From assembly GCF_032854445.1 (NCBI RefSeq), contig NC_088301.1, forward strand, positions 38,303,187 to 38,367,186: 64,000 nucleotides of DNA. The letters run 5' to 3'. This document shows, one piece after another, positions 367 through 44,773 of this stretch. Position 1 is the stretch's first letter; each line of letters starts with the position of its first letter. A program made the translations under genes and the position numbers. The notes below the pieces were generated by a model that was not told the DNA's origin, did not search any database, and was given only the letters and a program-made list of their open reading frames with translations. The stretch comes from Liolophura sinensis. Lineage: Eukaryota > Mollusca > Polyplacophora > Chitonida > Chitonidae.

Positions 367-3300
367 ACTCAACAACTTCTGGGTAGAGCCACACATTTTT
401 TCCCCCCGTGTTAACAGTGGGGCGCACAGTTCCATCAACAGCCATGCCCATGTACAGACCACGCACAGCTGCAGACTGTAGGCAAATGTAACCCTGCCCC
501 TTATGTTTCTCCACTATAAAGTGAGAATTCACTTCTGTCCCACCCTAAATTAGACAGAAAACAAGATTTCTCAGCTTTAGGACTGTCCAATACATGATTC
601 AAACAAAATTACAACATAAATACATACACAAATGCATCAAAGTCAATGTATTGATCAAATTATCACTGAATTTCATGTCAGTTTTATAAATTCTTCTAAA
701 GACTTTTATTCCATTTATTCGAAGTACAAGGGTGAGATAAGTTGAATTTGCATTACACTTCATCTCTGACAGAACTGCAAGCTAACTTGTCCTTTTTAAT
801 CACAAAAATGTCCTTATTCTCATCCCTGAAAGTAGATGTCCAGGGAACAAAGAATATTAACACTGATTTGTTTCTTACACTGATCTTTCGACGGCGTTTA
901 TTGCATGTATAGGGAACACCCAGAAACTTGACTGACGGGCTGACATTTCCACCTGGCATCACACACTCACCTGGCAGTCAATTTTCCCTTGCTTAACCCT
1001 GAGGTACTTTCCTGGGTTGACAATGCTTTCAAACATCCGTATGCCTCCCTCACTGACTTTGTGAACACGGAACTGTGCCAACCGATTCTTTTTGCCAGTC
1101 CCATTGACCTCATTCTCATGATCAATGCTGATGGCTTGGGTTGGAGAAGACATAAGAATTATGACACCTTTGTTCCTGAACATTCCCTGAAAAACAAAAA
1201 AAATAACATGTTAATATCTAAACATCAAAGTGTTTTACTCCATTCCTTTCAAAATGTTGACCACTTTGAACTCTGATAATCTTAAATCTTTATTTCTTGG
1301 TAATCTTGTTTTTACTATTACTTTGGTCACTTCATCTTTGTATCTCCTGGCAGCATGGACGTCTGATGGTGGTCGTGGGTCTCCTGCGGGCTTTCTGCAG
1401 TTCCTCCCACCATAATGCCTGCCGTCGTCGCATAAGTGAAATATTCTTGAATACAGTGTAAAACATCAATCAAATAAATCAATAGGTAAATTTAATTGTT
1501 TTTTAACACCATACTCATACTTGTGATGGTGGCCAGTTTCACGATTGGTGCAAATCTAATTTCCATGAGGTAAACCACTGACTACATCATAGTGTAGTAC
1601 ATTTTCTGATGTTTGATCACCAAATTCTACTGTTTATTTTTTTTTTTGTTTTCTATGTTTTAACTAAACGGAATCAATTCAGGGGACACCAAACCATTTA
1701 TCTGCAGTTTGGAAGGTGCAGCACTGGGGATCTACTTTAAGTTCCACCTAGTCCTGGAAGTTCAGACCATCGAGAAATTTCATTGTCAAGACAAGTCGAC
1801 AAATTGCCATGAAGGATGTAAACAAACGCGTTCTGATTTCGAAATACATGAATAGCCAGATCTCTAAATTGCGACAGCGTATGGTTGAAAAGACCAGTCA
1901 AAAAGATCTAAATACACATTTCAAAACAAATCAGGGAAAATATTTTTCCAAACCTATCCGACTATCTCGCTTTAAGACTTCCCTGCCCAAGAAAAGGACA
2001 GAGACAGATCTCATACGGCCTACTTATTGAAAGGCAAGCACCTTAACCACTTGTCCAGCAGCCTAATCCCCACCAACCCCTAACCAAAAATCCCACTGCC
2101 CCCAAACACACTCTACTGTGTGGTATATTCCATTTTGCCCACTGCTAAGTAGCAAGGAATTACCAAGACAGTTTCTAAATAAAATCATACCAAGGCCAGT
2201 TATGCTTATGTTACACCATAACTGCTTGGTGAATCTGGCTCATGCTCTTTTAACTTGGCCAAACACACCAATGTCATCACATAAGACCACACAGGGTATC
2301 CATTACCTTGCAGTAGGTATGGAACTGTTTGGACACATCCACCACCAGGCCCCTGACATCTCCTGCTTTACCGTTTTGCATAATCGTAATGTGCTGGAGA
2401 GGGTATTTCACAGATTCAAGCTGAACAGTTCTGTCGTGTTGCACTCTAACTCGGAACTCACAGTATGCCCCACCCTTGCCCTGTGAAAAGTAAATACAGA
2501 GAATCAAGCAGGTTTTGAGAATAAAGTCCCTAACACTTTCTGAGTTAGCATTCTGCAGCAATCGCAGTAATATGTACTGCCAGTAGATGATACTCACTTC
2601 CTCAAAGGCGTGGCACTGACGCTCACAAATGTAATTGTAACAAAGTAAACTACTGATGTAAATACTCTAATGCATTTGACCTCAACTTTGGAGTGTGAGC
2701 AAGTTACTCATGAGAGTTACGGTAAATGACCTAAAATTTCACCTTGGGACTCGCAAAGTGTATCCCATGATTCACTGCACTGATTGTGCTTCTTATTGAC
2801 TGGGCACCGTGGGAGAGCATAGGGGGTGGTAAGGGGATTGCACTAACAGTTCGAGAATGTAATAAACATGCTCATGCTTCACTGAGCAGTTAGTCTATGC
2901 TCCTACCACCAACAGTTCATGTCTTCCTCAATTTGTATCAAAATGATTTTAGCATATGCACTTCACAACAGGTTGATTATTTTCTATGTGTTATCATTAT
3001 TTTGTGATAAGTGCGAATTTAGGAGAAAACACTGGAGATCAAGCATGACTACCCAGTACCTTTCCGCATGTGGAGTGTCATGTCAAATATCGGTTTTTAG
3101 ACTGAAGGGCTCTCTGTATACAAAGCTGTAGCAGAATTTAGCACACTGTGAATCTTACTTGCAAACTAGGCCTGACACCAGACACATTGAAGATCTGTCA
3201 AACTGCAATAAAAGCCACACACATGCACAAGTGCGTCTGACATGCAGCAGCTAAACATTTCTTGCTCATTCTGGCGTAATTTGAAAGACTGTCAAAATCG

Positions 3301-6300
3301 TGATAGATTTCAGAAACCTCGTATGGAGTAAGTTTTCTGTGTTTAATGGAGGTTCCTGATTTAAAAACACGGTAAAAGGAACTGTTCTGCAATAGGAGGT
3401 CATGCTTTCAGACAGTGTTTGGAATTTAAAGGTTTGTAATAGACACCACCTGTCTTAATACTTTCTTTGATTTCTTTTATGGGTATATTTAGAGATGTAC
3501 ATGTTGGCCTGCTAGTCGGGGACCTGCACACATCATCATCAGTGACTTGACCTGATGTGGCGAGGATCAGCAACCAGAGCTGCTAAGTGCCATGCAGGTT
3601 AATGAAACAGGCAGGGGACAGATCACTCTCTTTGACAGTAACTCACATGTGAAACTTGTCATTTACGTCGAAACGAAAGTCATTTACTGTACATTCATCT
3701 TAGAAATATGTTTCATGATTTATTTGGAAGTTAAGATGAAAGTAATATTTCATCCCTTATCCTTTGCCACTGAATACATGTATGCTAAGTTTTCAGGCCA
3801 ATTTTAGGTAAAGATACAGACATAATAATCCAGTCTTAGAATGAAATGGGCAGACTTAATAGTGAAATAGAACACCAACACAAAATCCTAATCAGGTTAC
3901 ATATTTACACACATTTTTTTTCAAGTGAAGCCATTGGTATTTAATATTAAAGAATTTCTGCTAATGGTAAAATACTTCAGTAACTTACCTGTCCCAAAAG
4001 CCTGCCATTGTCAATTGCCAGATGGAAATTGTGATGTGCCTCATTACGAAACACACGCACCATTCCTCGCTTGACAGTCACATTGAAAATGGCTGAAATG
4101 GCAGACAAGATTGTTGTTTATCTTAAGAGAAATTCTTCTTATTTTTACTTTGTTAGACCGTCCTTTGTGCAGGAGGCCTACACCTAGGGTTACATGTACA
4201 TTTATAGATGAGGTAAATTTGAAAACAATGATTCAGGTCTGTGAAATGACAAATTCACAACTGATCTTTCCCAACACGATTCATTGAAAATTTCATTCAA
4301 GGTGGAGAAAACGGAAAATGACAATGTTCAGATGAAAGAAGGTGAAAAGTTATTCCTAATGTAGTCTTCAATATTTTTTCTGATTTTTCCTTAAGAAGAA
4401 AAGACCCTTGAAAATAATTTTTGTACGGTGGATATTTGTAGTCTTTTTTTAATAACATCATAAATGAGGATGTAACACAGGTTTAATCAATATTTTTGCA
4501 CTAGAATTTGTTCTTTTCAGCTAAAAAATTTATCAAACCTCAATGTGGATCATATTTGTATTTTTAATATGTTCATAAATGTTATCATAATTAAAGTTGA
4601 ATGCATATATGAATGTTTCAATATAAACAACAAATTTACATTCAAATAAATTTATAAATTTACCCTCATTTAGACGATTATTATTACGCAACAACCATAA
4701 ATACCAAAAGTTGGTCCCAAATACCCACCATACAAAAATACTTTCAAATACCCTTTTCTCTTAAAAATAAAAAAATCCCCAAAAATATAAAAGATCATAT
4801 CTGCAAATAAGTTTTGACGCTCCTTCGTCTGATTTTGACATCATTTTTATGTCTTCTTCTCCTCTAAGGTAAATGTTAAATATCTGTTGATGGCACTTTT
4901 TAATGTTCAATTTTCCACTGCTACCATGCCACTACGCCATATAATGTTTCATTCTTAAATGCAGAAACACCTTGAAGAATCAACATTAATTTTTTCTAGC
5001 ACAACACCTATTCAAAATGTCTTTGGTCCACCCTCTCCTTACATAACTCACCCGAGACACTACTTTCATCGCCAAGTGCATCCACAACAGCATCGGGTTT
5101 TATACGAAGAGCTTTTCCAGTCTGGCAGGAGAAGAACATCACCTGGTTTTTAGCCCCAAATTTCCATTTTTCAAACTCCCACTGTAAGACAAACAGTTGA
5201 TAAGGTATCTTAAGACAAAGATGAAAACATTTTAGTTGCCACTGACATTTTTACTGTATCATCAGATATATCTGTGAGCTCTGCAGAGGAAAATCACGCA
5301 TTACAAAGGCAAGTTTGGAGCTAAATTTCTATTCTGTTATGTAAACATTTTGCTTCAAAATATCTAAACCACACAAACAGATAGTTCATCAGTGTAAACA
5401 TCCAATACACTGTCTGAAAATACATTACAAAACATTACAAACTATAACATTAGATACAAAATCTGAAAACCCTCACAGAAAGACAGCGAACAGTTAACTA
5501 ATGGTTATAATTGTTTTCACATACATTTCTTTTTTCTAAGATGTCTGCCATGTATTCATCCTGAACTTTCAACTCCCTCACAACCTTGCCGTCATCTTCT
5601 CCAGCATCCAGCCACCTACACAGCATAGAAAAATGATATTGCAAAATGTTACACAAACACTGTATCAAAATCATGAAGACGTTCTTAATGTAACACAATT
5701 ATATTTACAAAAGCAGTTTGTTGATTCCATAAATAATCTTTATGAATGGCTTAATAATTTCTGAACACTTCAGATTCATTCAAAGATTTCTTTTGTCAAC
5801 TCAGCAGGTGAAGCTGAAAATTACTGTTTCCACAGTTCTCCTCACTGAAGGAAATGATATTTACATTTCACATATGAGAAATAAGAGGATGACTTCTCTC
5901 TGTATCAAATCATCTCCTACCCAAGAACAATGTACAATTTAACACATACCACAATTGGTAAGCTTCTTTAAACTTAGACATCCCAGAATAACAATACTGG
6001 AGGCTTTAACAATGGAAATCCACATTTTTAACACAGTGATATATCAACATTTTCAGCATTTTTTACACACAATTCAAAGAGGTACAACAAAAGTCTAAAG
6101 ACACAGTAATATAAAAATGTTTTCACATCATTCAAGTCTATCAAATCTTACTTTCCACAGTAAAATGTAAACTGGTTGTTAGTTTTCGTAGGATCCTTGA
6201 CAACAATTTTTTCTAGATACCAGCCATCTCCTGAAATGGATGTAAACAAAGATAACATAAGATATACATGTATTATTTATTATGAAGTGCACAAGTAGCT

Positions 6301-9300
6301 TTTCTTTTGCACAGATCAACAATACTTCTTCAAAATTTTTATTTATCATTAAGTACTGCATCATAGTAAATTATATTTAATGTAGTATTTTTCTTCCTAC
6401 CTGGATCTTTGGCATCATGTCCAACAATGACCCGGTTAATTGGACCTAAAGATACAGCTTCCACATGGAATGTGTTTGTCTGAAATCAAATAAAGAAAAT
6501 TACATACAGCGAGCAAGCTCAGATAATTTGAGGCTCAACCAGAAAAAAATGTGTCAAAATAGTGATATGAACAAGATGCAGGAATCAATACATGCCACTT
6601 GCAAATCCTGTGGAAAATCATGATTACACAGTCCACATATAAGTATGTTAACTTGTTAAACTGAAAAGTTTCTTATATGGTCCATGAAACAATGACACCT
6701 GAAAATTAAATCATTTACTCTGATGGCATAACCAGATGGATTTTTTTACAGGTGAGAAAAAACTGAAGTTTAAGGCAAGAAAAAACACTAAAATGAAGTA
6801 TATCTCACATCAAAGACCATTGAAAACTGTCCAGAAAAATAGCTTGATTTATTTTTTGTTCTAAAACATCAAATTTTAAGGTGGACTGTAGTGACCCGGA
6901 GGGTATCGGTGACATCACATTCATAATCTTTGCTTGAAGAAGTTCATTTAAATGTCTATTTAGTGAATGCATTCTTAGATCTATATATATTTGTAATTTG
7001 GATCAAGAAATCTAGCAGTCTATGTGTGTTCAGTGGCGAAAACCTGATGCGACGTCAAAAGAAATTGCCACAGTATTCATACTTTCAAACACATCTTAGT
7101 ATGTTGAAAAAAAACTAAAAAAAAAATGGACAGTTTTAATGGTCTTTCATCTGACATACATTCCATATTACAGTTTTCTTTGCCCTTAAAAAAAATACAC
7201 ACATATACTACCTAGCTAACATACCTGTCCTGAGAGAAACAATAAATCCTTTCTCTCTGTTGTAAGCTGCCTCACCCCAGAGTCACCACGTTCGCCATAC
7301 ATCGTCAGGTAAACGTTTGCTTTGGTGCCGGCATTCCACAGCTCTCCAGTTGTCACAGCCACCTCATATTTAATGACTGTCAAAAGTACAAAAGATTGAT
7401 GTAGAATTACATGCATTTTCAGACAAAATATCATGATATCATTCTTATAACTTATCTAACCGAATCATGTAATAACCAAAGCAAAAACACCTCTAAGAAG
7501 CAGAAACTGATCAAAGCTAGCCCATGATGTGAACATTTTAACAAACCAGAAATTTAATGATTCTAGATGAAAATATTGAATCAATGTCAAGATGGAGGAA
7601 GTTTGCCTCTCAGAAAATTACACAAAAATAGAAAAAGGAATAAACTATTTACTTATCGAAGAGCCCTAATATCTTAGGTGAATGCAGGAAAAAAACAAAA
7701 GCAATTTGCTGATCACTGTACACATATTCATATAAGTGCACCTCTTAAGCCACAGATTGGAGAATTATACCCCAAACCTATTTAGAGCATATGTATTATA
7801 ATGGATACTAGGTATTTGTGTACAAGTTTCAATCAATAAGATGCATGAAATACAACACTTCGCTTATAATTTAGCATGGTAACCAGATGTAATTATAAAG
7901 CAATATAAACCTCCTCATTAATGTATCAGTGGAAACCAGACAGTTTATTCATCACCATCATTATCCTTTTAAATCAATAAAAATGCACTAGAACGCCACC
8001 ATGCTAATATCAGTTACAAATTCCATAAAATTTACACTGAAAAAGACATTATTTAGAGTTAACGGTAATGGTTTCCATTAATTATGCACATGAATTTTGC
8101 ATTTTTCAGTATAAAATTTAGAATCTGATGAGACAACTACTATGATTCTTCATTGATTTTCCAGTAAAACCAGGGATACACTTCAAAGATGGATATATTT
8201 TTGTTTGTAGTGACAAACTTTTCCATCGATGAAATACTATATTGTAGACACAATAGGTGAATTTTTAGTGTGTCATTCAGCTATGTGACCTAGTAAATTT
8301 GGATCCAACAATATTGCCTCCAAAATGCGCCAGGAACACAAAGTGGATTTTTGTAATTTAAAAAATATGCCTGTATGGGTAGAAAAAATTACCCTTGTGT
8401 GCCTTGCTTTCAGTGTATTAATGAACACTTGTGCACTTTTAATTAATAGATTGCTAATACAACATAGTAATAGCATGTGATTAGTGGCTGATGCGCCTTT
8501 GATGAAATGTTTGTATGCATTTACAGTACACCTTGGAACATACTTTGCAACTGAGGCTCTCCTTTGCGCACTGCAGGAATTTCACGACATATTTCACCAT
8601 CATCCTCATCTCGAGCCATCCAGCGCTTGCACGGAAATATCAACTGTTCATCTGTATCCAGATCTTTCATCTCCACCTGGTAATAGTCACCATGGCAACA
8701 AACCTATACAGCACTATCAGGTATCTATGGCAACCCTATAACCAAGGTTGAAAGTCTACACTTACAGTGTATGCATTACTGAAGACACACTGAGTCACCC
8801 CTAGAGGGTTTGCCTGGTAACATTTTTAAAAATCCAGGAGAGATAAAGCACGTGAATTTCAGCACATTTTACGGCAAGCTGGAAGCTTAAAATGGTCACT
8901 ATAACCATCTGTAAATCTCTAATGAATGCAAAGCTAAAAATCAATATAAACTTGCCCACTGCATACAGGAAGCTTTTCTTGAGACATTCATTCACTGTTC
9001 ATAAAAGGACCCACCACACATTCTATTTCCCTAGCTCCCAGGTATTGTACAATTTATATCATAAGAGCATCTTATCTATCCTACCACTAAACACCAAACA
9101 TTCAATTTTGCCCTGAGGCTTAAACATGACAAACTGCTTTCGATCTCAAATAAATATTTCATATATAAGTCACATGCACTGATGTACATGCTTATAAAAA
9201 ACAGATTAAGTTCTTGTAATTTCCTTTCTCTAAATAAATTATATGTGACTTTATTTATCTATTTCACATATGACTAGCAGAAGCATACATTTCTTACCTC

Positions 9301-12300
9301 ATCACACAGCCAATTGGGGAATTCTCCCATATTGTCATGTCCAATTCTGATTTTGAAGACTTCTCCTATGTGGCCAACATTTATCTGCAATTTGACAAAT
9401 GCAATCAGACCACCACATACATGAAGGCTGCAGATGCATATATTCAAATGAATACAACTGCATGTATCTCATGATGTCATTTGGATGCAATGTTGCAATC
9501 AGGCATTTAACACTATTAAAGCACTTCTGGGCGCAATGACCCAGGAACCTCCCACCAATGTGGTCCCTCTGAGTTCAAGTCCAGCTCATGCTGGCTTCCT
9601 CTCTGGTCGTATGTGGGGAGGTATTCCAGCACCTGCGGAGGAATGTGGGTTTCTGCCCTGAGCATGGGCTCTGCCCAGTTTCCTCCCACCATAATGCTAG
9701 CCACCGTCGTATAAGTGAAATGTTCTTGAGTGTGCCGTAAAACACCAATCACATAATCAATAAATCATATAATTTGAATAACTTAGCCATCAACACTGGG
9801 CTACCAGCTTTTGTATGATGCTGTCACTTTTGAATAACTACTATATATGTATGTATTCTCCCTATATTATTCATGACTGCATTAGAAGCTTGTTGTCCAC
9901 ATATACATACATCAATAAAAATATTTGCTCTTTCCATTCTATAAAAATTCACGGCAACAAAAGTCTGTTTGCAACCAAAAAAAAGCTTGGCTACTAACTC
10001 AGTACTGCTTAGTGTACGTTGGGCAAAGTTAAACGTAAGAAGACTTGAGTTGTGAGCCTTGAAATTGTGGCTAAGGTGTCACGCGGCATTGTACTTGTTG
10101 CTACGAGTGGTCTCACGAAAAATGGAAGAAACTGATGGGAACCGAAAAAATGTATCCCAACGTTTCCCAGGTCAAAAGTACACGGAAACGAAAAAGTCTT
10201 TCCAAGCAATTCTGAAATTGTCATTTTAGGCACAAGTTTTAAATCATGTAACATTTATTGTAACACATAATTTATTTAATCATTTCATTAGATTTTTATA
10301 CATGTATTCTTCTGTCGTCAAGTTTAACATACATCAAACTGGTCGGTCTTCCCACTCTGAAAATGTTCAGTGCCGTCATTGTGTCCCAGGTGTAAAGGTC
10401 CAGAGTTATTGCGTGTTCCATACACTGTTATGGTGACGCCGGCATCAGTTCCTGCAGACGGCAGCTCATTGGTTGTCACAAAAACCCTCCAGCGCCCTCC
10501 TTTAAATATTTTAAGTTTTAGTCAATCATTTTTTGAAATCTCTTCACAACAAAGTAATACATGTGCAAAATACTAACCCAATTCATGGATGTATTGTAAA
10601 GGATGTCTTTGGGATCATTAAATTTTATAGACATCTGCATCACCAAAATATGCATCTTCAAACATGTACGTATTAATTTGTCACAGCTTGTCATAATTTG
10701 TAATTTGATCACATAAATGAAAACTGCTTCAACTAACGTACATCTAGATGTTTCTTTATTTCTATCTTTGTCAATATTTTAGCATATATTTGGAATCTTT
10801 TACACAAAGCCCTGTATAAGACTGTAAAATGTAGGCTACATGTTATTTAGCATCCAGAAAGATGTGCGGACTTACTTGTTTTTCCAAGTTTTTCTCTCCG
10901 ATCACGCAGCCGATTGGCTACTGTCCTGTCTGGATGGGTCAATAGTCTGCTTCTGTAACCATTAGGCCGGGGCCTGGCTGCCTGGGGAGGTTGAGGTGAG
11001 AGTCCCACCATTGGACGGAAGTTCTCACTGCCAGCCACAACAAACACATCTGGGCCATTGAAGATGGACGACAGGCTCTGAATCTGATGAAACAACCATT
11101 ACCATTATTACTGTTATGGCCAGACTCTCTCTCAGGGAAAAAGTTGCAGGCATTTGGGTGAAGTTAAGTATGCAGGTTAACCATGGGTTAAAGACCAAAC
11201 CATTAAATTTTGGTGGTGATTTTGATCAAGATCTCTATCCACTGGATCCAGGGATTTTTTAAATCACTTTCCTGTATTATTATTACAATGTTACACAATA
11301 CTGTAAACACATAGCACCAAGGATTCTGTCCTTTTCCATAAGTCTGACTCTAACCCCTACATATATCTGTCTTTTTTAACTACATATATGTACATGTATG
11401 TACCCTCTTATGGTTCAGTCCCAGATCAGATTGTTTTCAGTACATGAATTACATTTCATGACTGGATACGTATACAATGATCATTTAGTGGAGCATAAGG
11501 ACCATTCAGACTAGTAGTCAGGTGCTCTAAACACACATATGATCATTTTACAACCATGACAACAAAACAACTAAAGTAAGGAAGTGTAATGCAAGTATTT
11601 GACTGAATACGTCACTACAGGACAATTGCATCTTTCAGCAGCAGGGTGGTTATAGACGAAGAACAGAGGTATTACAAATATTTACATGTACTCCTGAAAT
11701 ATACTACTAATAATGATGATTAATAAACTTAGAAGTACAAGCAAGTAATGCCTGTTCCTCAACAGGGCACTTTTGTCACACCTGTCAACATACCAATGCC
11801 AGAGTGATAACTTTTAGTGCCTGTAATTCTTACCACTGCACAAAGGGCTCTTAAGATGGGCAAAAATATATGCATAATACATAAATAAATTAATCAATGC
11901 ATTTCAAATAATCTTTTAGGCCAATTATAACAATTAAGGCATGTGTAAACATCCTCTGACTGGCTCAGCTGTGACCTTTAACTATGAGTTTTGTCTGGTA
12001 TACATGTACAGATGTGCCTTCATGCCTGGATTCAGGTATTGCATAAAGGAGTTTCATTAGGGCTCCTCTCCCCAATTTCTTGTACCCAAAACTGTAGATA
12101 TTGAAGTCCAGGTGTCATTATTTTCAAAAAAACAATGGTTGTTTCACATATTCAGGTGAAATCCACAAATTCAAGCTTTCTATAAGTTTTGAAGACAGGA
12201 AGATATGCGAGTAGAAAACGTTTCAAAGGTACATGTAGGATGATATCCTTTGCGGGAAATGTCTGCACCAAAAGTATAATTTTATTACCTTTCTTTCTCT

Positions 12301-15300: not shown

Positions 15301-18300
15301 ACAGTCACATTAATATTGTACAACCGTTGACATGGTCGACTCAATGTAACTTGTGCACTTTGATCTGATAACTGATAATTTATTTATACCTGTGATCTAG
15401 CTTATCAGCATGGGAACCCTTTTGTTTTGCAAAGCTGTCAGTTTCAACATTTTTATATTATGCTAATAACACAAAAGTATGAAAATTTTTGATTTTGGAC
15501 ATATTTAAACATTCACAGTACCTTCAATAAAATGTTGATTACACAATATATTGGAGGCATCATGGCAAATAAAGCAGAATGGTGAAGCCACAATATCCTT
15601 AAGACCTTGATTACCCAACATCTCCTTAAAACAATTGAAAAAATGATCGAACATGAAAGCCAAGAATGTGCTTTCCAACTGAATAAACTACTGTCATACT
15701 TATTTCATCCTGGAAGGGCCATGCAAATAGTCAGCTGAGATGAATGTTTCAAAATATGAGCATTATTATCATCATATATCTGTCTGTCACAACATCATCC
15801 ATGATTTTTAAGTGACATTGGCTGATTAGTCTGGTTAAAATGTTGACATCCACTAGTCAGTCATGTCAGCACTGAAGGCCGTGCTCACAAGGGGTACATA
15901 CAAGCCCAGCACAGCTGAATTACTGCGCAGGCTGATATAAGTTTTATTCATGACGCTGCATTCCGTGGCACGTCATGGTGATGTCACACCATTAACCAGC
16001 GCTGCCTGAAGTTGTAGCATGCTACATGTAGCATTATTTTTCTTACCTCAGCTTAACATAGGGCGAGGCTGGTTTTCTATTTGATAAATATTGTAGGGAC
16101 AAAATCGTTATCCGCGTGTTGAGAAGGGTATGTAGGGATTTAAACCCTGGGTGTGAAATTTTAACCCTTCACCTGCAGATGAGGGTTAAAATTTCACACC
16201 CAGGTTTTAAATCCCTACATACCCTTCTCAACATGCAGATAACATAATGTAGCAGCATACTGTAAGTAACTGTGTAATAAATTTTTCAGGTACAAGACAC
16301 ATCAGTTCAGTGCAGTTTTAAGGCTGATGTACTAGAGAATTGTTCCAGTGACTTTGTTGTTTTCACAGTTATACAACAGGAGATCGTTTAGTCAACAGAC
16401 GCATATGGCATCAGCTTCAGGTTTGAGGAGATTATACATGCGCTGGATATTTATGTCCCCCGCGTAAACGTTGTTATCCACTGAAAACCAGCGTATTTTG
16501 TCAGGTTCAGGATAATATACATTTACAGTACATGTATCTCCTAAGGTTTACATTATAAGTTTACAATGGTTCATATGAGAGCCTACTGATTTTTTTTGAG
16601 CCTATTAACAATACAATAATAATTTTTTTACAATAATTAATTGCTCATTTTGCAATTTTGTTATTGATCTTCTTTTGGAAGGTAGTACAATATTTTAATG
16701 GTTAATGTAAGTTTCAGCACCAAAAGTATAATATTCTAAAACATTTACTCTGCTCTAAAATGCTCTCTTTTGGGTGAAAATTTAAGTCATTTACACGTAC
16801 ATATCCATTTATTTCTAATTTTGTCGTATTTTCAGAGAAATTCAATCAGGACAGCTGCATGTAATCTATTATAATTTATGCTCAGAGTGGTAGGGTACCA
16901 AGTATAGTCGTACATGTGTGCACCTGGTGTTAACGTAATTTTCCTACATACCAGGTACAAACATGTACATCATATATATGTACGTGATGCTTGGGATCAG
17001 CTCTGAAAACAAATCAATATTCAGCTCACAGGGCCAGTCTCTAACGCTGACCAAAGCAGTCCAAGAAAACTTACATGTACAGGAACAGGCATTATCCTGA
17101 GCTTCTGACTAAAGACTTACATGTAATTAGCTTATTAAACTTCCATGACATATTTTCCACCTAGTCATTAGTTTATCAAATGGCAAAAATATGGACATTT
17201 TTCTCTGCATGTTAAATTTATGTATTTCACAAATTTTGCAACCAAGAGTACCAAAGAGTCTGCCTGGAGGAGACACATGAAACAGAATGCAAAACTCAAA
17301 ATTTTTAAACATTTCACTTGACAAGAAGTCTAATACACAAATGAGACATGAAAGTCATGAATTTCAAAATTTACAGTGAGCAATACATGTACAGTGAATG
17401 CAGCTCTTTTTGAAATACCACCAATAACATTATTTTAACAGTGATTTGATTACACAAGACACTGAGTCATGAATTTTCAATAAGTAATTTACAGCAATAT
17501 CATGCACACAGGACATCAGTTATGGGACATTCATCTCATAGTATTTGTATTAAAATGATATCTATTTCAAGATGAATTTAAATGGCATTCTGTTTAAACA
17601 GGTTATTAGTACCATTAGCTACAATGTAAAACTGGACACCAATCCCTTAGTAAATATCTTAACACTGTTCTACTGTTCTTGGACTCCAGTGCAAGGGGTA
17701 TGAAATAAGCTACACCTGTATCTTGTACTCTGAGTAAAAAAAAAGTCAAAAAATAGTCTCTGCACTCACCCTTCGTCCATCAATGGTGAAGATTTTCCTC
17801 ACAGCTATTTTAAACATATCACTCATGTCTGCCAGCACCTGTTCAAAAGTCTGAGCTGTCCGACGGTTCAACAAAACAATATGGCGGTCTGTCGGCTCCC
17901 CATTTCTCATCACCGTGATCTTTTTTGGTCCATAAATGCTGCTGGCTTGGTAGCTGGCTTCTGCAGGACGTATGCGCTGAACGTCCATTCGACGTCTTGC
18001 GCGAATTCGATTGCGTCTGTCACGTTCTCTTGGAGAGAGTATGCTGTTTAAAGCCCTGCGACCACTGGGTGGTCTTGTATAATGCCAAGCTGGTGGAGGT
18101 CCAAACCGATTCAAGTCCACTCCTTTAGCATAGTGACGGTGACTGGAACAAACATATCGTCCCTCATTTGACAAATCATCGATATTCCCTACAGGATCAT
18201 GTCCACGGGGTGTAAAGATGCTGCGCACACCAAATGACATTGGTATTCTGCTGGACAGCTCGTTGAGCAGAGTATCAAAACTGCGATACTTTCTAGGGTG

Positions 18301-18438
18301 AATGGCAAGCTTGAGGGCATTAAAGTTTTGGTCCCCATCTTTGTAAAAGTAAACAGTTTTTGCTGCAGGGAATTGAGTTAGGGTAGCTCTTGACCCCCAG
18401 GGGGCCCCACTGTCGGGGTTCTGTGGACTATGGTTCAT
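367..18438 (-). CDS. RP1L1: RP1/RP1L1-family doublecortin-PLAT protein, 3' partial
   Basis: Coding exons in transcript order: 18438-17770, 11083-10876, 10499-10333, 9384-9298, 8676-8532, 7376-7225, 6479-6401, 6230-6152, 5615-5525, 5181-5052, 4092-3989, 2480-2307, 1186-971, 544-367. All have GT-AG borders and phases agree throughout (826 codons, continuing past the left edge). Residues ~27-108 and ~171-253 are two doublecortin domains (VYFYKDGD; KITVMRNGEP...FNGPDVFVVAGSE), spaced as in vertebrate RP1/RP1L1. Residues ~294-420 and ~427-555 are two PLAT domains (VTITVYGTR, INVGHIGE; VYLTMYGERGDSG, RVIVGHD, GWYLEKI). From ~560 onward the repeats resemble a beta-trefoil (fascin/ricin-like), which is an inference. 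The RP1 family binds axonemal microtubules of cilia and photoreceptors; PLAT domains usually bind lipid or protein. Start: ATG at 18438, because an in-frame stop lies just upstream in the same exon. It could equally be named RP1-like. Confidence 0.88.
1350..1490 (+). mobile_element. SINE 3' part
   Basis: Body GGTGGTCGTGGGTCTCC, then CTCCCACCATAATG, the conserved ATAAGTGAAATATTCTTGA tail and (AAAT)-like end. Same family as the other SINE copies in the window. 5' truncated. Lies in the intron after coding exon 12 of the RP1-like gene. Confidence 0.75.
1990..2065 (-). mobile_element. Possible tRNA-like SINE head remnant
   Basis: The minus strand reads GGACAAGTGGTTAAGGTGC, like the A-box region of a tRNA-derived SINE. 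No body or tail follows. Weak. Confidence 0.3.
9516..9770 (+). mobile_element. SINE, nearly complete
   Basis: Contains a B-box-like GAGTTCAAGTCC near 9570, the body (CTCTGCCCAGTTTCCTCCC, CCACCATAATG) and the tail (AAGTGAAATGTTCTTGAG, AACACCAATCA). Lies in an intron of the RP1-like gene, antisense to it. Confidence 0.8.
11084..15786. other. Large intron of the RP1-like gene, 5' half on plus coordinates
   Basis: Part of the 6.7-kb intron between coding exons 1 and 2 of the RP1-like gene. Apart from a SINE scrap at 12.8 kb I see no exon: phases of the flanking exons join directly. ORFs here (up to 141 aa at 14501-14926, minus) show no motifs. Confidence 0.6.
12821..12917 (-). mobile_element. 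SINE tail fragment
   Basis: Reverse complement of the family tail: TTTATTTGACTGGTATTTTA, TTCAAGAATTTTACAC, then a degenerate body. 5' truncated. Confidence 0.6.
15787..16101. mobile_element. MITE-like element, copy 1
   Basis: Shares with 26150-26421 the blocks CATCATCC(A/G)TGATTTTT, AAAATGTTGACAT(C/A)CACT, GACGCTGCATT, CAGCGCTG-like and TTAGCTCAGCTT-like, ending GTAGGGACAAAATCGTTA. The end TGTAGGGACAA is the inverse of TTGTCCCTACA at the start of copy 2, so the family has short terminal inverted repeats. Non-coding. It sits directly left of the 16.1-kb hairpin, in the RP1-like gene's large intron. Confidence 0.55.
16107..16243. repeat. Near-perfect inverted repeat (62-bp arms, 13-base loop)
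   Basis: Arms 16107-16168 and 16182-16243 match at 59 of 62 positions when one is reverse-complemented. The loop is TCACCTGCAGATG. Arms include GAGAAGGGTATGTAGGGATT and TGGGTGTGAAATTTTAACCC. It would form a very stable DNA cruciform or RNA hairpin. It lies in the large intron of the RP1-like gene. It may be a recent foldback MITE; the few mismatches argue for youth or gene conversion. Confidence 0.9.
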
Positions 18439-18479
18439 TGTTGGTAGCTCTTTGTCAGGCACTCTCCATGATAATGGTC

Positions 18480-21400: not shown

Positions 21401-23336
21401 ACATGGTCGTCCACTTACAACTCTCTAGTATACATAGATGTTGGCTATTGTTTGAAATCTGATTTTGGCTTTAATACTGGCTGATCTCACAAGTAGTGAG
21501 AAAAGGGGAATCTACAATATCCCTGTCCCAAAGTGCTACATGTACCTGTTCATGTATACAGTAACTTCATATGTACTTGTTCTGTTTCCCCGACTAGAAA
21601 GAGTAATGGTACACACATAATGACAACATTTAAAGGACATAAATTCTCACTGCCTGAAAATGAAACAAAACTTAGAAAAAAGAGTTTACATCAATTAAAA
21701 TTTATTACTCAGAATTCTCTGCTTTTAGGAACTGTGAGTTATGTATGTACTGCGCAATCTAAGAGTTATATCTTTATTCCATCTTCACATTTTCTCACAC
21801 AAATAAGTGAGATCTGAACCAAAGAATGGTTCAGATGATCCATTGTGCGGCTCCCAGGTGACAGTGTCATCCATAACCCCCTTTGTGGGAAAGGTCTGCA
21901 TTTTATATGTTTAGACTTAATGCAGTATGCTATCAACTCCTGATATATATACATGAACATGTACATAAATAAGTACCTATAGGTGTGTAGGTTTTTTATA
22001 GAGTACAGTGAAAAACACCAATCAAATAAATAAATATATCTTCATAGTCAAAAAATGAAATGGAAACTAGACGCTGTGCACTGATGCATCTTCTATTGTT
22101 TCATTGCCACACATTACAGGGTAGAGGAACAAATTAAAATGAATCTGTTAATTGATACATTTTCAATTTTTTGCTATAATTTATATCATACATCACTATT
22201 CCATATAAAACCTTTTTTTGTGCTGATGATGTTTCCAGTATATATTGCAATAAGAAGAAATTATTCATGAGAAAAGGTGAAAAATGCTGAGAAAGTGAGA
22301 TTTGTAAATGTCTACAAGTACTACAATTAACACCTCTCACCTAGCAAGAAAGCATACTTCTAAATAAACAAATCCCATTGAATGACATGTATAACTCAGT
22401 GACTGGACAAGAGCAAATACCGTTTTTCTTTGTAGGTCCAGTTAACAAAATGTTCCATTCTCTGTAGCACCTCATGCATTTATGCCATTGTCACATAATG
22501 TGATAAACATGAGTAAACATGTACATGTAGTAGTACTGTTATATATTCATTTGGCCTATGTACAGCAAAGCTATGCTTGCTTGTCATGCAGACAACAGAG
22601 TTGCAAACATAAGTAACATAAGTAGGTTCTACAAGCAGTGTGTGGTAGTTAAGCAAATTTTTTTGTGTTTTAAGGCCATGCAGCCACATTCAAAATTAAG
22701 GACAATAAAATACTTGAATGTACATGTATTTACATCAACTGTTCTGTTACTTTACTCTGTCACTTTATTCTCACAAGGCAGTAACATATAACTTAAAAAT
22801 AACCTAAATTGTTAATACTAAAAGATTTTAAATGTACCAGAATAATGTTATAGTAATAAATAAATATTATATAGCCTACACAGCTAAAAGAACAATGTAA
22901 AGAATAAATTTTATGTTCAAACATTAAATAAACTTTGTTCTCTTGCTGCAGTACAGTTACAGAACTGCAAAAATATGGTATGAAACAACACCCTATTATC
23001 ACCGTCTGCAATAATTTTTCAAAACCTTCTAGGACAAAACATCCCATTAATAAAGAATGAAAATGTAAGCTTGCGCTGGAAATCTATCACCTGCAAATAC
23101 TATTGCAAGGGCACTGGAGTCAATTCACCGTACTTGAGGTACATACTTCAGACTGAGCTTGAGCGTGAAGGTGATTAGTTTGTTCTTTTTTTTTCTTGTG
23201 TTATTTTTTTAACAAAGTAATATACTTCACATGCCAGATAACTAACGTCTTATGAGACACATTTCCTGTGTTTGCCAATCAAACCATTTTCAACTTCGCT
23301 ACACGCAGAGAACAGCATGAAAAAGGCTATACTCAC
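18480..23336. other. Leader intron of the RP1-like gene
   Basis: AT-rich sequence between the putative leader exon and the first coding exon. It contains only a SINE tail scrap at 22.0 kb, frequent TACATGTA motifs and short chance ORFs (108 aa at most). No coding or RNA gene recognised. Confidence 0.5.
22000..22040 (+). mobile_element. SINE 3' tail scrap
   Basis: Only the end is present: GAGTACAGTGAAAAACACCA, ATCAAATAAATAAATAT. In the leader intron of the RP1-like gene. Confidence 0.5.
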
Positions 23337-23450
23337 CAGCAGGTGCGCGACACAAGAAATGCTGTCCGCCATAAGTTTACGTTCGCAACTCTCGTTGAAG
23401 TGCGTCTCCAGTCACGTGACGTAGACGTGTTGTTTACATCGATACCGATG
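23337..23450 (-). other. Probable non-coding first exon of the RP1-like gene
   Basis: On the minus strand a strong donor (CTG|gtgagtat) ends a possible exon at 23337. An acceptor (gttttcag) lies near 18480, just upstream of the DCX start codon. The exon holds ATG at 23372 followed by 12 codons to the donor. After splicing to the 18.48 kb acceptor this frame stops at once (TCT TGA), so it would be a short upstream ORF and not the protein start. The right edge, i.e. the transcription start, is not visible. The implied leader intron is about 4.9 kb. This exon is inferred from splice signals and needs transcript support. Confidence 0.5.
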
Positions 23451-23637
23451 GTTTAGAATTAATGGACTTGTTTCGTGATCTTTTTCCTATTTTGCTGCAT
23501 GACATTTTACAATTTGACTCGTCAGAATTGACCGAGTACAGGAGCAAAAACTTTCCATATAGACCAACTGAGGAAAACCCTAAAAAGTTTGTGAAACGAT
23601 TACTTTATCGGAGCAGCGGGGCTTTGTTAGCAACAAA
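23373..23637. promoter_or_regulatory. Bidirectional promoter between the RP1-like gene and C8orf74
   Basis: About 265 bp separate the minus-strand leader exon ATG (23372) from the plus-strand C8orf74 ATG (23638). The interval is richer in CpG than its surroundings. It contains CACGTG (23413-23418) overlapping TGACGT (23417-23422), an E-box fused to a CRE/ATF-type site. A single RFX-like half-site, AGCAAC, lies at 23629-23634; no complete X-box was found. No TATA box was found. RFX control would be expected if both genes are ciliary, but one half-site is weak support. Confidence 0.5.
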
Positions 23638-23653
23638 ATGGCGACGTCAATAA
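23462..23653 (+). other. 63-codon upstream ORF overlapping the C8orf74 start
   Basis: An ATG ORF of 63 codons (starts MDLFRDLFPILL, ends WRRQ) runs through the presumed 5' leader of C8orf74. It stops at 23651-23653, 13 bases beyond the C8orf74 ATG (23638) in another frame. It resembles no family I know. If transcription starts upstream of 23462, this overlapping uORF would reduce translation of the main frame. It may instead lie in the promoter and never be transcribed. Confidence 0.35.
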
Positions 23654-26594
23654 CAGCGGAGGAAGCGCGTCACGTTGCTTCCTTGCCGGTAAAAACAAAC
23701 TGTCAAACAGTTGATTTTGACGTATAGTTATCTCTTTATAGTCTGTACCTCTTTAATTATTTATGGGGAAAATACGACGCTATGGATTTGAACTTCTCAT
23801 TTTGTGCTGAAGTACTATATACATTATACTAGACCTACTGCCAAGCTGCCTGGTAGTGGTATAATTAAGTTGAATTAGACGTTGATGTCAGTTTTCAATA
23901 ATGAAACAGGCACCAACGTTTAATTAAATTAAATTAAATCAATAGTGGTAGTGGTAAAATTATTTACAGTACTTGATACAGATAAATAAAAAGAAAAATA
24001 GTTTTCATTACCATGGACTAGCCGTTTTGATAATTCATTCATAAGTAAATCAACATTCGGGTCTTTTGTCCTCACCTAAATTACACAAAATTTTTTTTTT
24101 TTTCTGAAAATAAACTCCAGTTACATCAATTTGCCAGTGAACTATAAGGTACTAACAGCTAGTAGCCTATATATTTGCATGGGGTCTAAATATATTTATT
24201 TATTTGATTTGTGTTGTGTGCAGTACTCAAGATAAATGTCTCACTCATACCATGACAGCCAACATTAAGGCGTGAGGAAACCAGGCCCTGGACACGCCCT
24301 TGGCCATCCAAAGGCTGGTATAAGTAAGGCATTATATTACAGTCTGATGAATATATTTGTTATCAACAGAAAGAAAGAGGCAAGCCATTGCTGTCATCCT
24401 ATCTTCACTGGGAACCTTATAGTGACTCCAGTATGACCAGAGAATCCATCCATTTGGATTTCCTCTACGACAGCATCATGTTTGCTTCTGAAAAGGGGTT
24501 CCCATGGGGTCAGGTGTCCCAGGTCATGTCAACAGCAGAAGAGTTACTTACTGGTACAAAAGGTGAGTTTTAGCCTGTTCAACAGTCTCTGCTTTATTTA
24601 TTTTCATACCATACTGCTATGTAAGATCTTTTATGGTAACGACAGGCTTATATATATATATATATATATATATCTATACCAGGTTTATTGTTTTATGGTT
24701 GAGAAAACCAAAGAGTGAAGAGTAAACATACCAGTACCCTTTGGAAAGTAATGCACATAATTTCCCACATCAGGCACACGTGATACACAAATTTTTATCT
24801 GCACAGTGATCTCATGCCATATTGGTGGAAGGCATGTCATCTAACTCCAGTGAATAAAAGTTAAGCACCGCATATTGTCACCGAGGTCCAGATCAACAGC
24901 TGTTGCGACAGTGAGAGGCTGGTATTTTGAACAAGTGCACATTTTAATTGTGTATTAGAATAGCAACTGAAAGATAAGTCACATATCACATCAGAAAAGT
25001 GATGTTGCCACAGTATTGTAATGTAACATCTTGAAACCCTTGTATTAAATACTTAATAGTCTTGTGTGGAAAATGTTACCAGTAGCCTGTGCCCAGACCC
25101 CATGCTTTATTATAGTCTTCAGCACTACCTCAACTTTATCCATATTGACATTGGTATGATTGTGATTATTTTGATGAGTAACAGATGTAAAGTATTGTAT
25201 ATGACCTAAAATTTCGTCCATCATAAGTTACCATAGGTCCTACTTATTTTGCCTGTTTCTGAGAGTTATATTGATCTTAGGACCACGTTTTGGGGTTTGT
25301 TCAGAAGATAGGATTATTAGTATATCCTACTGGTTTCAGAAAAATGTCAGTTTCAGCACCAAAAGTAATACTTGAATTTTTTGATCTTTATTTCCCTCTA
25401 AACATACACTTTTTTGCATGAATGAATTTCAGCCGTACCAGTATGGGATACTTTAATTCCTACTGTTAGGGTACTAATGAAATTTTCAGGTCTCCATTAC
25501 AAAGAAATCACAAATACCACAACATGTGATTGACCATGCAGATTTAAAGATTTAAAAGTATTTTTTTTTTTTTTTTTTTTTTTGGTGAAACTGGATACTG
25601 TTGCTTGTTTGGGAAGAGCAGAGAGAGTGGGAGAGTAAGTTTGATTAATGATGAAATTAGCTCATTTGTTTTTTTTTCACAGGGAAGACTTTGGTGGAAG
25701 CTGTGAAACTGTATCAAGAACAATCCATACACTTGATTGAAAGGCTTGGAGAGAGGAATTTTCAGATTTACACCGAGTTTGTGTTTTCCACATTTATGAC
25801 CCACTTCAAACTGTTTCAATTTGTGTTCAACGTAAACCGTGAAGAGTTGATTCCAAAAGTCTCCAGGACAGTTGCTTGTCCGCCAAGCCCTGTGGCCCTC
25901 AGGGAGGCCAAACTTGACTATATATGGGAATATGAGCAGGAATATAACAGTATCGAATCTAAAGAAAAGGAGAAGTGTGAGAAATGGACCAAAGAACAGA
26001 AGAAAGTGGCAAAACAGTCTGCACAGTCATTGGCCTCAGTTAGGGAAAAACTTCAAACTGTGGAGTCGCCACTCACAAAAGAGGTGGGCTTTTTTATGTA
26101 CCAGTAATTCAGTGAAATATTACAGGAAATTATCAAAATCCAAATATTAGAATTGTCCCTACATCATCCGTGATTTTTGATTGCCATTTGCTGATCATAC
26201 AGATGAAAATGTTGACATACACTTGCAAGCCCTGCATTCCATGCCTACATGAGTTAATTAAATTTTTATGTAAACCCGCACTGCTGAAATAAGGATAATG
26301 TGATTTTATTTAGTGACGCTGCATTTATTGCGAGTCACGCCACTATACTAGCGCTGTCTTCAGTCGTTATGCTTTTTCTTAGCTCAGCTTTACGTATATG
26401 CAAAATTGGCTTTGTTAGGACAAAATCGTTAACTTACAATATTATCTCACATTTTCTGACAAGATGTGCACATCGACCAATCAATACTTCAGTAAGGAGT
26501 TCAAGGCATTCTTATCCTTGTTAAGGCCATAGCTGTAGGGTGTTTTTGGTTGAACCGACACTTTTTGAAACAATATAAGAGAGAGAGAGGTATG

Positions 26595-26650
<56 letters not shown>

Positions 26651-27900
26651 TACTTCAGATTCATTTGTACAGGTGGTTAGCGTGCCAGCACAGTGCAATC
26701 ACTCAGGAGCCTGTCACAAATGTAGTCGCAGTGAGTTCAAGTCCAGTTCATGCTGGAGGATGGCTGTGGGTTTCCCACGGGCTCTATCCAGATTTCTCCC
26801 ACTATAATGTTGGCCAGTCGTATAAATGAAATATTCTTGAGTATGACGTAGAACACCAATCAAATATATAAATATATTCCTTGATACGGTCAGGTTTTTT
26901 TCTCATCACTGACGATAGTAGAAATACAGTAGCAAGTTACATGCCCTTTGAACACTATAAATTGCAATTTCCAATGGAAGTTAAATGTCTCCCTTTCCCA
27001 AAATAGACAGAATTTTAATTATGTCATATTTGATTGCCTTTTAGTCTGTCGCTGAAATCATCAAGGACATTCTCGGAACTTCAGCCTTAGCAACAACCGA
27101 GAGGATAAAGACCTCAATTTCACAGACGATGGAAGACCTTGAGTTAAAGTTGGAGAGAACACTTATTCCTCGCCCCCAGGCTATGGGTAAATTTCCTTTG
27201 AACCGTCTACCATACATACATGTGTATGGAGGAAGACCTAATTCAGACTCAGCTATGGTTTGCTTTCATATCTGCAAATATAAATTACATGCCTTGTTCC
27301 ATTATATCTGTACATCATTGTATTACTTAGTGTATATTTACTTATTTGATTGTTGGTTAATGCCATACTGAAGAAGTTTTCACTTGTATGATGGCAATCA
27401 GTTTAAATTTTGGAAGAAGCAATAATGCCTGGGATAAACCATTAGACTTTGGCAAGTCAAACTTTGCACATGTATGCAATGCACAGCTACACATGTCATA
27501 TTGATGTGAATCTACAAATTCCCAGTCCAAGGCTGAGAACCTGTAATTCAGGAGTTCATTATGTATTGTTGTATAATACATGTACATGTATACATGTATT
27601 TCATGTACTGTTTCGGAAAAATACTGGCAGGGTATGTGAGTTAAATGTTAGTAAAGACTATACAAGTCAGTATTAAATATTTGACAGGCCAAATTAAACT
27701 AATACATACTAGTCTAAAAGTGTGTTATTGGTTTTGCAGGGCCTCCTCCCAGGTTCAACCAAAGTGCGCTACCTCAACTGCCAGAAGCTATCCGCCCTGC
27801 TCCTGTTACATGCACAAAGGCACCCAAGCCAGAGAAAGGAAGACCGAAATCGAGGGAATCTACGCGTTCAAATAAGTCAACGAAATCTGGACAATCTTGA
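23638..27900 (+). CDS. C8orf74: C8orf74 homologue
   Basis: Five exons with consistent phase: 23638-23688, 24370-24562, 25683-26083, 27045-27186, 27740-27900. Together they encode 315 aa ending in TGA (human protein about 294 aa). Recognition rests on the block around residues 37-65, with LDFLYDSIMFASEKGFPW followed by EELLTGTKG, which matches human C8orf74 closely in spacing and key residues (LY-SI-FA--KGFPW-(x)-QV---EELL--TKG). The 401-bp exon adds a helical region (FMTHFKLFQFVF) and a charged coiled segment. The C-terminus is basic and low in complexity (KAPKPEKGRPKS). The biochemical role is unknown; in mammals expression is mainly reported in testis and ciliated tissue. It is divergent from the RP1-like gene and tail-to-tail with EIF3I. 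The start is the first ATG with correct phase before a clear donor; the first 17 codons are the least certain part. Confidence 0.85.
24187..24312 (-). mobile_element. SINE fragment
   Basis: Starts with TTTATTTATTTGATTTGTGT, then degenerate TACTCAAGATAAATGTCTCA and GGAAACCAGGCCCTGG. Lies in intron 1 of C8orf74. Confidence 0.65.
24649..24673. repeat. TA microsatellite
   Basis: About 12 TA units, in C8orf74 intron 2. Confidence 0.9.
25561..25583. repeat. Poly-T tract
   Basis: 23 T in a row, in C8orf74 intron 2, about 100 bp before exon 3. Confidence 0.9.
26150..26421. mobile_element. MITE-like element, copy 2
   Basis: Begins TTGTCCCTACATCATCC and ends TTAGGACAA before AAATCGTTA. Collinear with 15787-16101 over about 270 bases at moderate identity. 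It starts within 70 bases of the C8orf74 exon 3 donor. Non-coding. Confidence 0.55.
26600..26642. repeat. TA microsatellite
   Basis: About 21 TA units followed by CACACACA, directly before a SINE in C8orf74 intron 3. Confidence 0.9.
26672..26876 (+). mobile_element. Full-length tRNA-derived SINE
   Basis: A-box-like TGGTTAGCGTGCC near 26673 and B-box-like GAGTTCAAGTCC near 26735 give a tRNA-derived head with an internal Pol III promoter. The conserved body follows (TGGGTTTCCCACGGGCTC, CTCCCACTATAATG), then the tail ATAAATGAAATATTCTTGAG and ATCAAATATATAAATAT. The best complete copy in the window. In intron 3 of C8orf74, just after a TA repeat. Confidence 0.85.
27329..27560 (-). mobile_element. 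Degenerate SINE
   Basis: Minus-strand tail (ACTTATTTGATTGTTGGTTA, ACTTGTATGATGGCAATC) followed by a body and the block CCCAGTCCAAGGCTGAGAAC, shared with the 48.95-kb SINE. Old, diverged copy in the last intron of C8orf74. Confidence 0.5.
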
Positions 27901-38254: not shown

Positions 38255-38442
38255 CTTTGTAGATTTGCTTACAACCTTAAACAATACGATAGATATTTCA
38301 CTTTTACCACGAGTGTCTCAATACCGGAAGTACTATTTCATCTTGCGTCCGCGCAGAAGGGATACGTTTCCGTCGAATGCCATGTGCTTTTGTTTTGAAA
38401 ACTTTAAAGGTTCAGATTTGCTCGAACAGCCTAAATCATGAG
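38255..38442. promoter_or_regulatory. Bidirectional promoter between EIF3I and TMEM234
   Basis: Short interval between the EIF3I start codon (38254, minus) and the candidate TMEM234 first exons (ATG at 38382 or 38443). It is locally CpG-richer (CGTCCGCGCAG; CGTTTCCGTCG) and has no TATA box, as expected for a shared housekeeping promoter. No specific factor site is claimed. Confidence 0.5.
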
Positions 38443-42464: not shown

Positions 42465-42850
42465 CTTTTTTCCTGGGCTTGATGTGATGTTCTGAAAAGT
42501 CTTCCATACTGGGCTTGTGATGTACTGAAAATTTTTCCTATTGGGCTTGATGTGATGTTCTGCAAAGCATTCTCCTTGAGCTGAAGGAATGTTCTGAAAA
42601 GTCTATCTTCTAAGGCTTGATATGATGTTCTGTGTTCTGAAAAGTTTTTCTTCTAAGACTTGATATGATGTTCTGAAAAGTTTTTCTTATAAGACTTGAT
42701 ATGATGTTCTGAAAAGTCTTTCTTCTAAGGTTTGATATGATGTGAAAAGTCTTTCTTCTAAGGTTTGATATGATGTTGTGAAAAGTCTTTCTTCTAAGGT
42801 TTGATATGATGTTCTGAATAGTTTTTTTCCTCTTGGTCTTGATTTGGTGC
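42465..42850 (+). repeat. 36-bp minisatellite, subfamily A, forward block 1
   Basis: Irregular repeats of a unit containing GGGCTTGATGTGATGTTCTG followed by AAAAGTCTTTCTTCTAAG. Copies vary from about 28 to 42 bp and are more diverged than in the other blocks. Confidence 0.85.
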
Positions 42851-44765: not shown

Positions 44766-44773
44766 ACAAAATT

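What the first reader, a model, noticed from the sequence alone, without database searches (positions are those of the whole stretch)
367..27900. RP1-family gene and C8orf74 are head-to-head, as in human 8p23.1
In human, RP1L1 and C8orf74 are neighbours on 8p23.1 in opposite orientations. Here an RP1-type DCX gene and a C8orf74 homologue start about 265 bp apart on opposite strands. If confirmed, this is a bilaterian-age divergent pair, suggesting shared regulation (probably ciliary or germline). It also gives orthology support for both genes beyond sequence similarity.
Basis: partly seen in the sequence, partly recalled or inferred. Interest (0 to 1): 0.72.

Follow-up and report, generated by a model that had tools for sequence, protein, structure and literature searches.

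The report
Head-to-head RP1-type and C8orf74 genes
In this animal genome a relative of the retinal-disease gene RP1 and a relative of the uncharacterised human gene C8orf74, which looks like a cilium protein, start back to back at one promoter-like spot, much as their human counterparts are neighbours, which hints at an old pairing that still has to be checked in other animals.

Summary
A 5-exon, 315-aa C8orf74 homologue (+, 23638-27900) and an RP1-type doublecortin gene (-, down to 367 and off the window) diverge from one spot. The two first-exon ATGs lie 266 bp apart, in the most CpG-dense 400 bp of the window. The RP1-type first exon rests on a strong donor and its context; its ATG is probably only an upstream ORF, and the main start is at 18438 in exon 2, as in human RP1.

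Identity is firm for C8orf74, as far as a recalled human sequence allows. For RP1 it is only favoured: a 3-residue DC2 gap shared with RP1/RP1L1 supports it, but the tree does not reject DCX or DCDC2. Unlike vertebrate RP1, this gene is DCX2-PLAT2-beta-trefoil.

New lead: C8orf74 belongs to the CLAMP family of C1a central-pair proteins, possibly the FAP114 side (tree not decisive). A second human-like divergent pair, EIF3I/TMEM234, lies in the same window.

Not shown: bilaterian age (organism unidentified, no other invertebrate examined) and shared regulation. In humans the genes are about 17 kb apart (partly recalled) and reported in different tissues.

The parts
23638..27900 (+). C8orf74 homologue: 5 exons 23638-23688, 24370-24562, 25683-26083, 27045-27186, 27740-27900; 315 aa, CLAMP family
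   Evidence: splice model without stops; 102 bits, 31% over 175 aa to recalled human C8orf74, best of 200 shuffles 23 bits; Pfam CLAMP E 1.2e-4, 22.9 bits against cut-off 22.7
23373..23637 (.). region between the two first-exon ATGs, core of the presumed shared promoter (23637 is the base before the C8orf74 ATG)
   Evidence: 266 bp (23372 to 23638); CpG peak 23301-23700, rank 1 of 1272 windows, shuffles at most 20 CpG
23337..23372 (-). putative first exon of the RP1-type gene from its ATG to the donor; probably 5' UTR with an upstream ORF; true 5' end unknown
   Evidence: G|GTGAGT donor at 23336, one of 8 GGTRAGT on the - strand; ATG position
17770..18438 (-). main start codon and coding part of exon 2 of the RP1-type gene, tandem DCX region up to DGRR
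   Evidence: Pfam DCX 8.8e-29, two stretches; 669 bp, phase 0
10876..11077 (-). exon 3 of the RP1-type gene, end of the second DCX domain, ends in phase 1
5525..10499 (-). seven exons that encode two PLAT domains (10499-10333, 9384-9298, 8676-8544, 7376-7225, 6479-6401, 6230-6152, 5615-5525)
   Evidence: Pfam PLAT 1.8e-37, two stretches; PDB polycystin-1 1.7e-10 and lipoxygenases; splice model
367..5181 (-). five exons that encode FGF-like beta-trefoil sequence (5181-5052, 4092-3989, 2480-2307, 1186-971, 544-367); gene continues off the window
   Evidence: Pfam FGF 1.7e-14, two stretches; PDB designed beta-trefoils 2.6e-11, natural FGFs only 0.04 and weaker; splice model

Best explanation
The locus is a divergent pair of axonemal genes that share one CpG-dense 5' region at about 23.3-23.7 kb. 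Leftwards runs an RP1-type tandem-doublecortin protein that should bind and stabilise ciliary microtubules through its DCX pair, with PLAT and beta-trefoil domains as membrane- or partner-binding modules. Rightwards runs a C8orf74 orthologue of the CLAMP family, most likely a small subunit of the C1a (PF6/SPAG17) projection of the central pair. Shown: both gene models, the arrangement, the CpG peak, CLAMP membership, and C8orf74 identity against a recalled human sequence. Inferred: use of the 23337-23372 exon, RP1 rather than another DCX clade, joint transcription in ciliated or germline cells, the C1a role, and common descent with the human RP1L1-C8orf74 neighbourhood.
For: Gene models and spacing. 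CpG peak, rank 1 of 1272, above 60 of 60 shuffles. C8orf74: 102 bits against 23 for the best of 200 shuffles; window and human C8orf74 join at 100% bootstrap apart from CFAP119, FAP119 and FAP114; two pieces of the recalled human protein agree with qPCR primers printed in PMC3757027. CLAMP: Pfam in both members; profile hits mouse CFAP119 4.1e-7 and Chlamydomonas FAP114 1.8e-6 in PDB, both central-pair C1a proteins (passages). RP1: best full-length scores to RP1 and RP1L1, 3-residue DC2 gap shared only with them among six sequences. Human neighbours: PRSS55, RP1L1, C8orf74, SOX7, PINX1 in a gene table.
Against: RP1 grouping has only 63% bootstrap; DCX (AU 0.42) and DCDC2 (0.18) placements are not rejected, the best single-domain phmmer score is to DCX (86.3 against 74.7 for RP1), and the best solved relative is DCX (no RP1 among its 17 hits). 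PLAT and trefoil are not in vertebrate RP1 as recalled; a recalled RP1/RP1L1 motif was not found. Intron positions are not diagnostic. The first exon has no transcript support. No perfect or 11-of-12 X-box in 23200-23900. In humans the genes are about 17 kb apart and tissues differ.
Confidence: 0.5

Rival explanations
1. The DCX gene is not RP1 but another tandem-DCX lineage (DCX/DCLK side, DCDC2 side, or an invertebrate-only DCX-PLAT-trefoil family). The C8orf74 neighbourhood is then coincidence, or marks a common ancestor of several DCX genes.
For: AU test does not reject window+DCX (0.42) or window+DCDC2 (0.18); RP1 grouping only 63%. DCX is the best solved relative and best single-domain score. 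Different tail. DCDC2B is listed with EIF3I and TMEM234 in one sheep interval of 31 genes, and EIF3I and TMEM234 are in this window.
Against: DC2 three-residue gap shared with RP1 and RP1L1 only; best tree puts it with them; best full-length scores are to RP1 and RP1L1; the neighbour is C8orf74, as for RP1L1 in human.
Confidence: 0.25
2. The genes are head to head but do not share regulation: the 23.3-23.7 kb CpG peak is the promoter of C8orf74 alone, and the RP1-type gene starts elsewhere (for example just upstream of exon 2).
For: No transcript evidence; exon-1 ATG leads only to a short upstream ORF in the likely splice forms; human genes are far apart and in different tissues.
Against: A strong donor on the RP1-type strand inside the peak, in a window where 5 of 8 such sites are donors of other modelled exons; exon 2 is preceded by a pyrimidine tract and AG, so another exon must lie upstream.
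Confidence: 0.2
3. The + gene is the orthologue of CFAP119 (CCDC189) rather than of C8orf74.
For: Same Pfam family; the two-sequence profile hits mouse CFAP119 best in PDB.
Against: 92.6 bits to recalled human C8orf74 against 17.2 to mouse CFAP119, 100% bootstrap with C8orf74; the window protein alone does not find CFAP119 in PDB at E up to 1.
Confidence: 0.03

Closest known systems
Human RP1L1-C8orf74 neighbours on 8p23.1
   Same: An RP1-family DCX gene next to C8orf74 (gene table of PMC8027303), in opposite directions (recalled)
   Different: About 17 kb apart in human (C8orf74 position, RP1L1 recalled) against 266 bp here; RP1L1 without PLAT or trefoil (recalled); tissues differ
Human TMEM234-EIF3I bidirectional promoter
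   Same: Head-to-head pair with a tested 310-bp shared promoter (table of PMC5930751); the same pair is head to head in this window with ATGs 197 bp apart
   Different: A different, general-function pair; a yardstick, not part of the finding
RP1 / RP1L1
   Same: Tandem DCX, DC2 three-residue gap, start in exon 2 and junction after DGRR as at human c.615
   Different: PLAT and FGF-like trefoil instead of the long vertebrate tail; clade support weak
C1a proteins FAP114, FAP119, CFAP119 (CLAMP family)
   Same: Same Pfam family; profile similarity to CFAP119 and FAP114
   Different: Diverged: the window protein alone scores 17.2, 7.8 and 6.7 bits to CFAP119, FAP114 and FAP119

Membership tests
C8orf74 | Sequence closer to C8orf74 than to the paralogue CFAP119 | tested here: met
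   92.6 against 17.2 bits; 100% bootstrap; human sequence recalled, two pieces checked
CLAMP (PF14769) | Score above Pfam's gathering score | tested here: met
   22.9 against 22.7 bits, narrowly; exon 3 alone is below it, 15.7 bits; recalled human C8orf74 also matches, best 2.1e-8
FAP114 orthology of C8orf74 | C8orf74 groups with FAP114 to the exclusion of CFAP119 and FAP119 | tested here: inconclusive
   Best topology, 81% bootstrap, others AU 0.20 and 0.22; single-sequence scores point the other way: FAP114's best is CFAP119 (43.9) and not C8orf74 (18.5)
RP1/RP1L1 | Tandem DCX domains at the N-terminus | tested here: met
RP1/RP1L1 | Places in the RP1 clade | tested here: inconclusive
   63% bootstrap; DCX AU 0.42 and DCDC2 AU 0.18 not rejected
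RP1/RP1L1 | Short DC2 loop (three residues fewer than DCX, DCLK1, DCDC2) | tested here: met
   alignment of six sequences, five recalled; the feature was picked on this alignment
RP1/RP1L1 | Vertebrate-type tail motif after the DCX pair | tested here: not met
   four patterns made from recalled sequences, none in six frames; PLAT and trefoil instead. The gene runs off the window
Bidirectional promoter pair | Starts within 1 kb on opposite strands | tested here: inconclusive
   266 bp between the first-exon ATGs if the 23337-23372 exon is used; no transcripts
Bidirectional promoter pair | CpG-dense region between the starts | tested here: met
   rank 1 of 1272 windows
Bilaterian-age conserved pair | Same pair in several phyla | not testable with these tools
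   No animal genome collection on hand; the genome search 'own' unanswered in 8 tries

The most novel reading that the evidence does not exclude
C8orf74 is the unrecognised animal counterpart of Chlamydomonas FAP114, a C1a central-pair subunit, and has been transcribed from one shared promoter with an RP1-family microtubule protein since the bilaterian ancestor; the ancestral RP1 was a DCX-PLAT-trefoil ciliary protein whose tail was replaced in vertebrates.
Probability: 0.15. Interest if true: 0.75.

Novelty: new member of a known kind. Interest (0 to 1): 0.5.

Why it matters
If the pair is found across phyla, it is an old divergent gene pair that ties an uncharacterised human gene (C8orf74) to a retinal-disease family. 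It gives C8orf74 a testable place, the C1a projection of the central pair. It would also carry RP1 beyond vertebrates: in the 2006 survey of the DCX superfamily the RP1/RP1L1 group of the tandem-domain tree lists only vertebrates (passage of PMC1550402), and the domains seen here suggest what an older relative looked like.

Tried and rejected
Rejected: that the + gene is CFAP119. Rejected as evidence: the intron after DGRR and the following phase-1 intron, because recalled DCX exon limits (c.705, c.808) have the same phases and the first falls at the matching residue. Rejected as the likely start codon: the 23372 ATG (sequence); one weaker acceptor that would keep the frame was seen by eye and not tested.

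Led nowhere: PDB search with the C8orf74 homologue alone (six weak hits, none of the family); four patterns for a recalled RP1 tail motif (nothing); X-box scan (best site in 23200-23900 is 10 of 12, at the C8orf74 exon-1 donor; the single 12-of-12 site of the window is at 20896; 3 of 60 shuffles also hold at least one). Paper searches: 'oxygen-regulated protein 1' with 'mollusc' (0 papers); RP1L1 with c.133C and chr8 (0 papers), so RP1L1's position and both human orientations stay recalled; at least two of CCDC189, C8orf74, CFAP119, 4930578I06Rik (0 papers; the last name is recalled); doublecortin with RP1L1 or 'PLAT domain' (none of the 16 listed holds both doublecortin and 'PLAT domain'); microsynteny and bidirectional promoters (nothing on this pair in the 15 of 52 and 10 of 66 papers listed; supplements could not be read). 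Zebrafish rp1l1 paper PMC7600334: two passages seen, nothing on gene order.
Full report
What is there. On the + strand a five-exon gene encodes 315 residues (23638-27900). On the - strand a gene of at least 14 coding exons runs from 18438 down to 367 and off the window; 820 residues read without a stop, with GT donors and AG acceptors and matching phases at the modelled junctions. Pfam gives two DCX (1.4e-28), two PLAT (1.8e-37) and two FGF-type stretches (1.7e-14). PDB searches with the middle part find PLAT proteins (polycystin-1, lipoxygenases); with the last part they find designed beta-trefoils (2.6e-11), natural FGFs only at 0.04 and weaker.

Where they start. The exon with the DCX pair is preceded by a pyrimidine-rich tract and AG, so an exon must lie upstream. 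Of the 8 GGTRAGT on the - strand, 5 are donors of exons modelled on other grounds (970, 3988, 5051 and 17769 of this gene, 38251 of EIF3I), 23336 is this one, and two are unexplained. The 400 bp at 23301-23700 hold 26 CpG, rank 1 of 1272 windows; the highest value in 60 dinucleotide shuffles was 20. With the likely acceptors the exon-1 ATG opens only a short upstream ORF, so the protein should start at 18438. Human RP1 is alike: four exons, three coding, with c.615+1 at the exon 2-intron 2 boundary (passages of PMC11878163).

Identity of the + gene. The recall was checked at two places: one frame of each C8orf74 qPCR primer printed in PMC3757027 (passages) gives a five-residue piece of it. The window protein passes Pfam CLAMP narrowly (22.9 against 22.7 bits; exon 3 alone does not), and the recalled human protein matches too (best 2.1e-8). 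A profile of the two finds in PDB mouse CFAP119 (4.1e-7), Chlamydomonas FAP114 (1.8e-6) and, not significantly, FAP119 (0.78).

The FAP114 lead. CFAP119 prefers FAP119 (63.8 bits) to FAP114 (41.2). In a five-sequence tree CFAP119 joins FAP119 at 81%, which leaves FAP114 with C8orf74, but the other topologies are not rejected (AU 0.20, 0.22), and single-sequence scores go the other way: both C8orf74 sequences score CFAP119 above FAP114 (17.2 against 7.8, and 31.6 against 19.1), and FAP114's best partner is CFAP119 (43.9), not C8orf74 (18.5). Papers name CCDC189/CFAP119 as the homologue of both FAP114 and FAP119 (passages of PMC12297659, PMC7999657, PMC6678824). FAP114 and FAP119 sit with PF6, FAP227 and DPY30 in the C1a arm (passage of PMC9113940). 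No paper of the open library holds two of CCDC189, C8orf74, CFAP119 and 4930578I06Rik. InterPro may carry the domain assignment already; I could not check.

Identity of the - gene. BLAST against recalled human sequences gives RP1 121, RP1L1 117, DCX 108 and DCDC2 65 bits without composition adjustment, and RP1L1 121, RP1 119, DCX 112, DCDC2 63.5 with it; by phmmer the full scores are 115.7, 106.7, 93.6 and 45.6, but the best single domain is to DCX (86.3 against 74.7 for RP1). The best solved relative is DCX (83 bits), and none of the 17 hits is RP1. The alignment shows a three-residue gap in DC2 shared by window, RP1 and RP1L1 and absent from DCX, DCLK1 and DCDC2. The six-sequence tree puts the window gene beside RP1+RP1L1 (63%); DCX (AU 0.42) and DCDC2 (0.18) placements are not rejected, and joining it to RP1 alone is rejected by AU (0.024) though not by SH (0.065). 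It would thus be a relative from before the RP1/RP1L1 split. The DGRR junction equals human codon 205, but DCX has a junction at the matching residue if recalled c.705 is right. The tail differs, and patterns for a recalled RP1/RP1L1 motif found nothing.

Human comparison. A table in PMC8027303 lists PRSS55, RP1L1, C8orf74, SOX7, PINX1 in that order; PMC6696953 gives C8orf74 at chr8:10530146-10558103 and SOX7 from 10581277. RP1L1's position (about 10.464-10.513 Mb, hg19) and both orientations are recalled; the gap is then about 17 kb. RP1 and RP1L1 are mainly eye genes (passage of PMC1550402); C8orf74 appears among germline (meiCT) candidates and was the only one of 11 tested with no up-regulation in cancer arrays (passages of PMC4278308). 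Shared regulation is thus not visible in human.

A second pair. Pieces of EIF3I (-; 1.5e-33) and TMEM234 (+; 3e-9) are confirmed by Pfam. Their start codons are at 38254 and 38452, 197 bp apart, and splice in frame to the next exons. The human pair is in a table of tested bidirectional promoters, 310 bp (PMC5930751). So this window keeps at least one other human-like head-to-head pair.

How it works, in my view. The DCX pair should bind between protofilaments as DCX does (passage); PLAT and trefoil would tether partners or membrane (inference). C8orf74 would sit in C1a near CFAP119 and SPAG17 (inference from the family). A joint promoter would switch both on in ciliated or sperm-forming cells (inference, untested).

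Noticed in passing
window 35402-39508, start region about 38100-38500: EIF3I (-) and TMEM234 (+) are head to head with start codons 197 bp apart, like the human pair with a tested bidirectional promoter; 38101-38500 is also among the 15 most CpG-rich stretches listed.
   Followed up: partly
window 367-18438 (-): The RP1-type gene combines tandem DCX, two PLAT and FGF-like beta-trefoil sequence; I found no paper on such an architecture (only).
   Followed up: partly
whole window: Mammals keep DCDC2B, TMEM234 and EIF3I close together (one sheep interval of 31 genes); here a DCX gene of RP1 type lies in the same 64 kb as EIF3I and TMEM234. Coincidence or an old DCX gene cluster.
   Followed up: no
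window 20896-20909: The only perfect 12-of-12 RFX X-box match of the window, GTTGCCTTGGTAAC, in the presumed first intron of the RP1-type gene; 3 of 60 shuffles also had one.
   Followed up: partly
window 50445-51602 (-): A 386-residue open frame, CpG-rich, without a Pfam family (best E 0.8); contains RVTF, which recalls a PP1-docking motif.
   Followed up: no
window about 42600-46500: Long tandem-repeat arrays with open frames on both strands (SRCDVLKR... and HRHHSIKP... type units; seen).
   Followed up: no
window 53761-55383 (-): Open frames that look by eye like pieces of a LINE reverse transcriptase and endonuclease.
   Followed up: no
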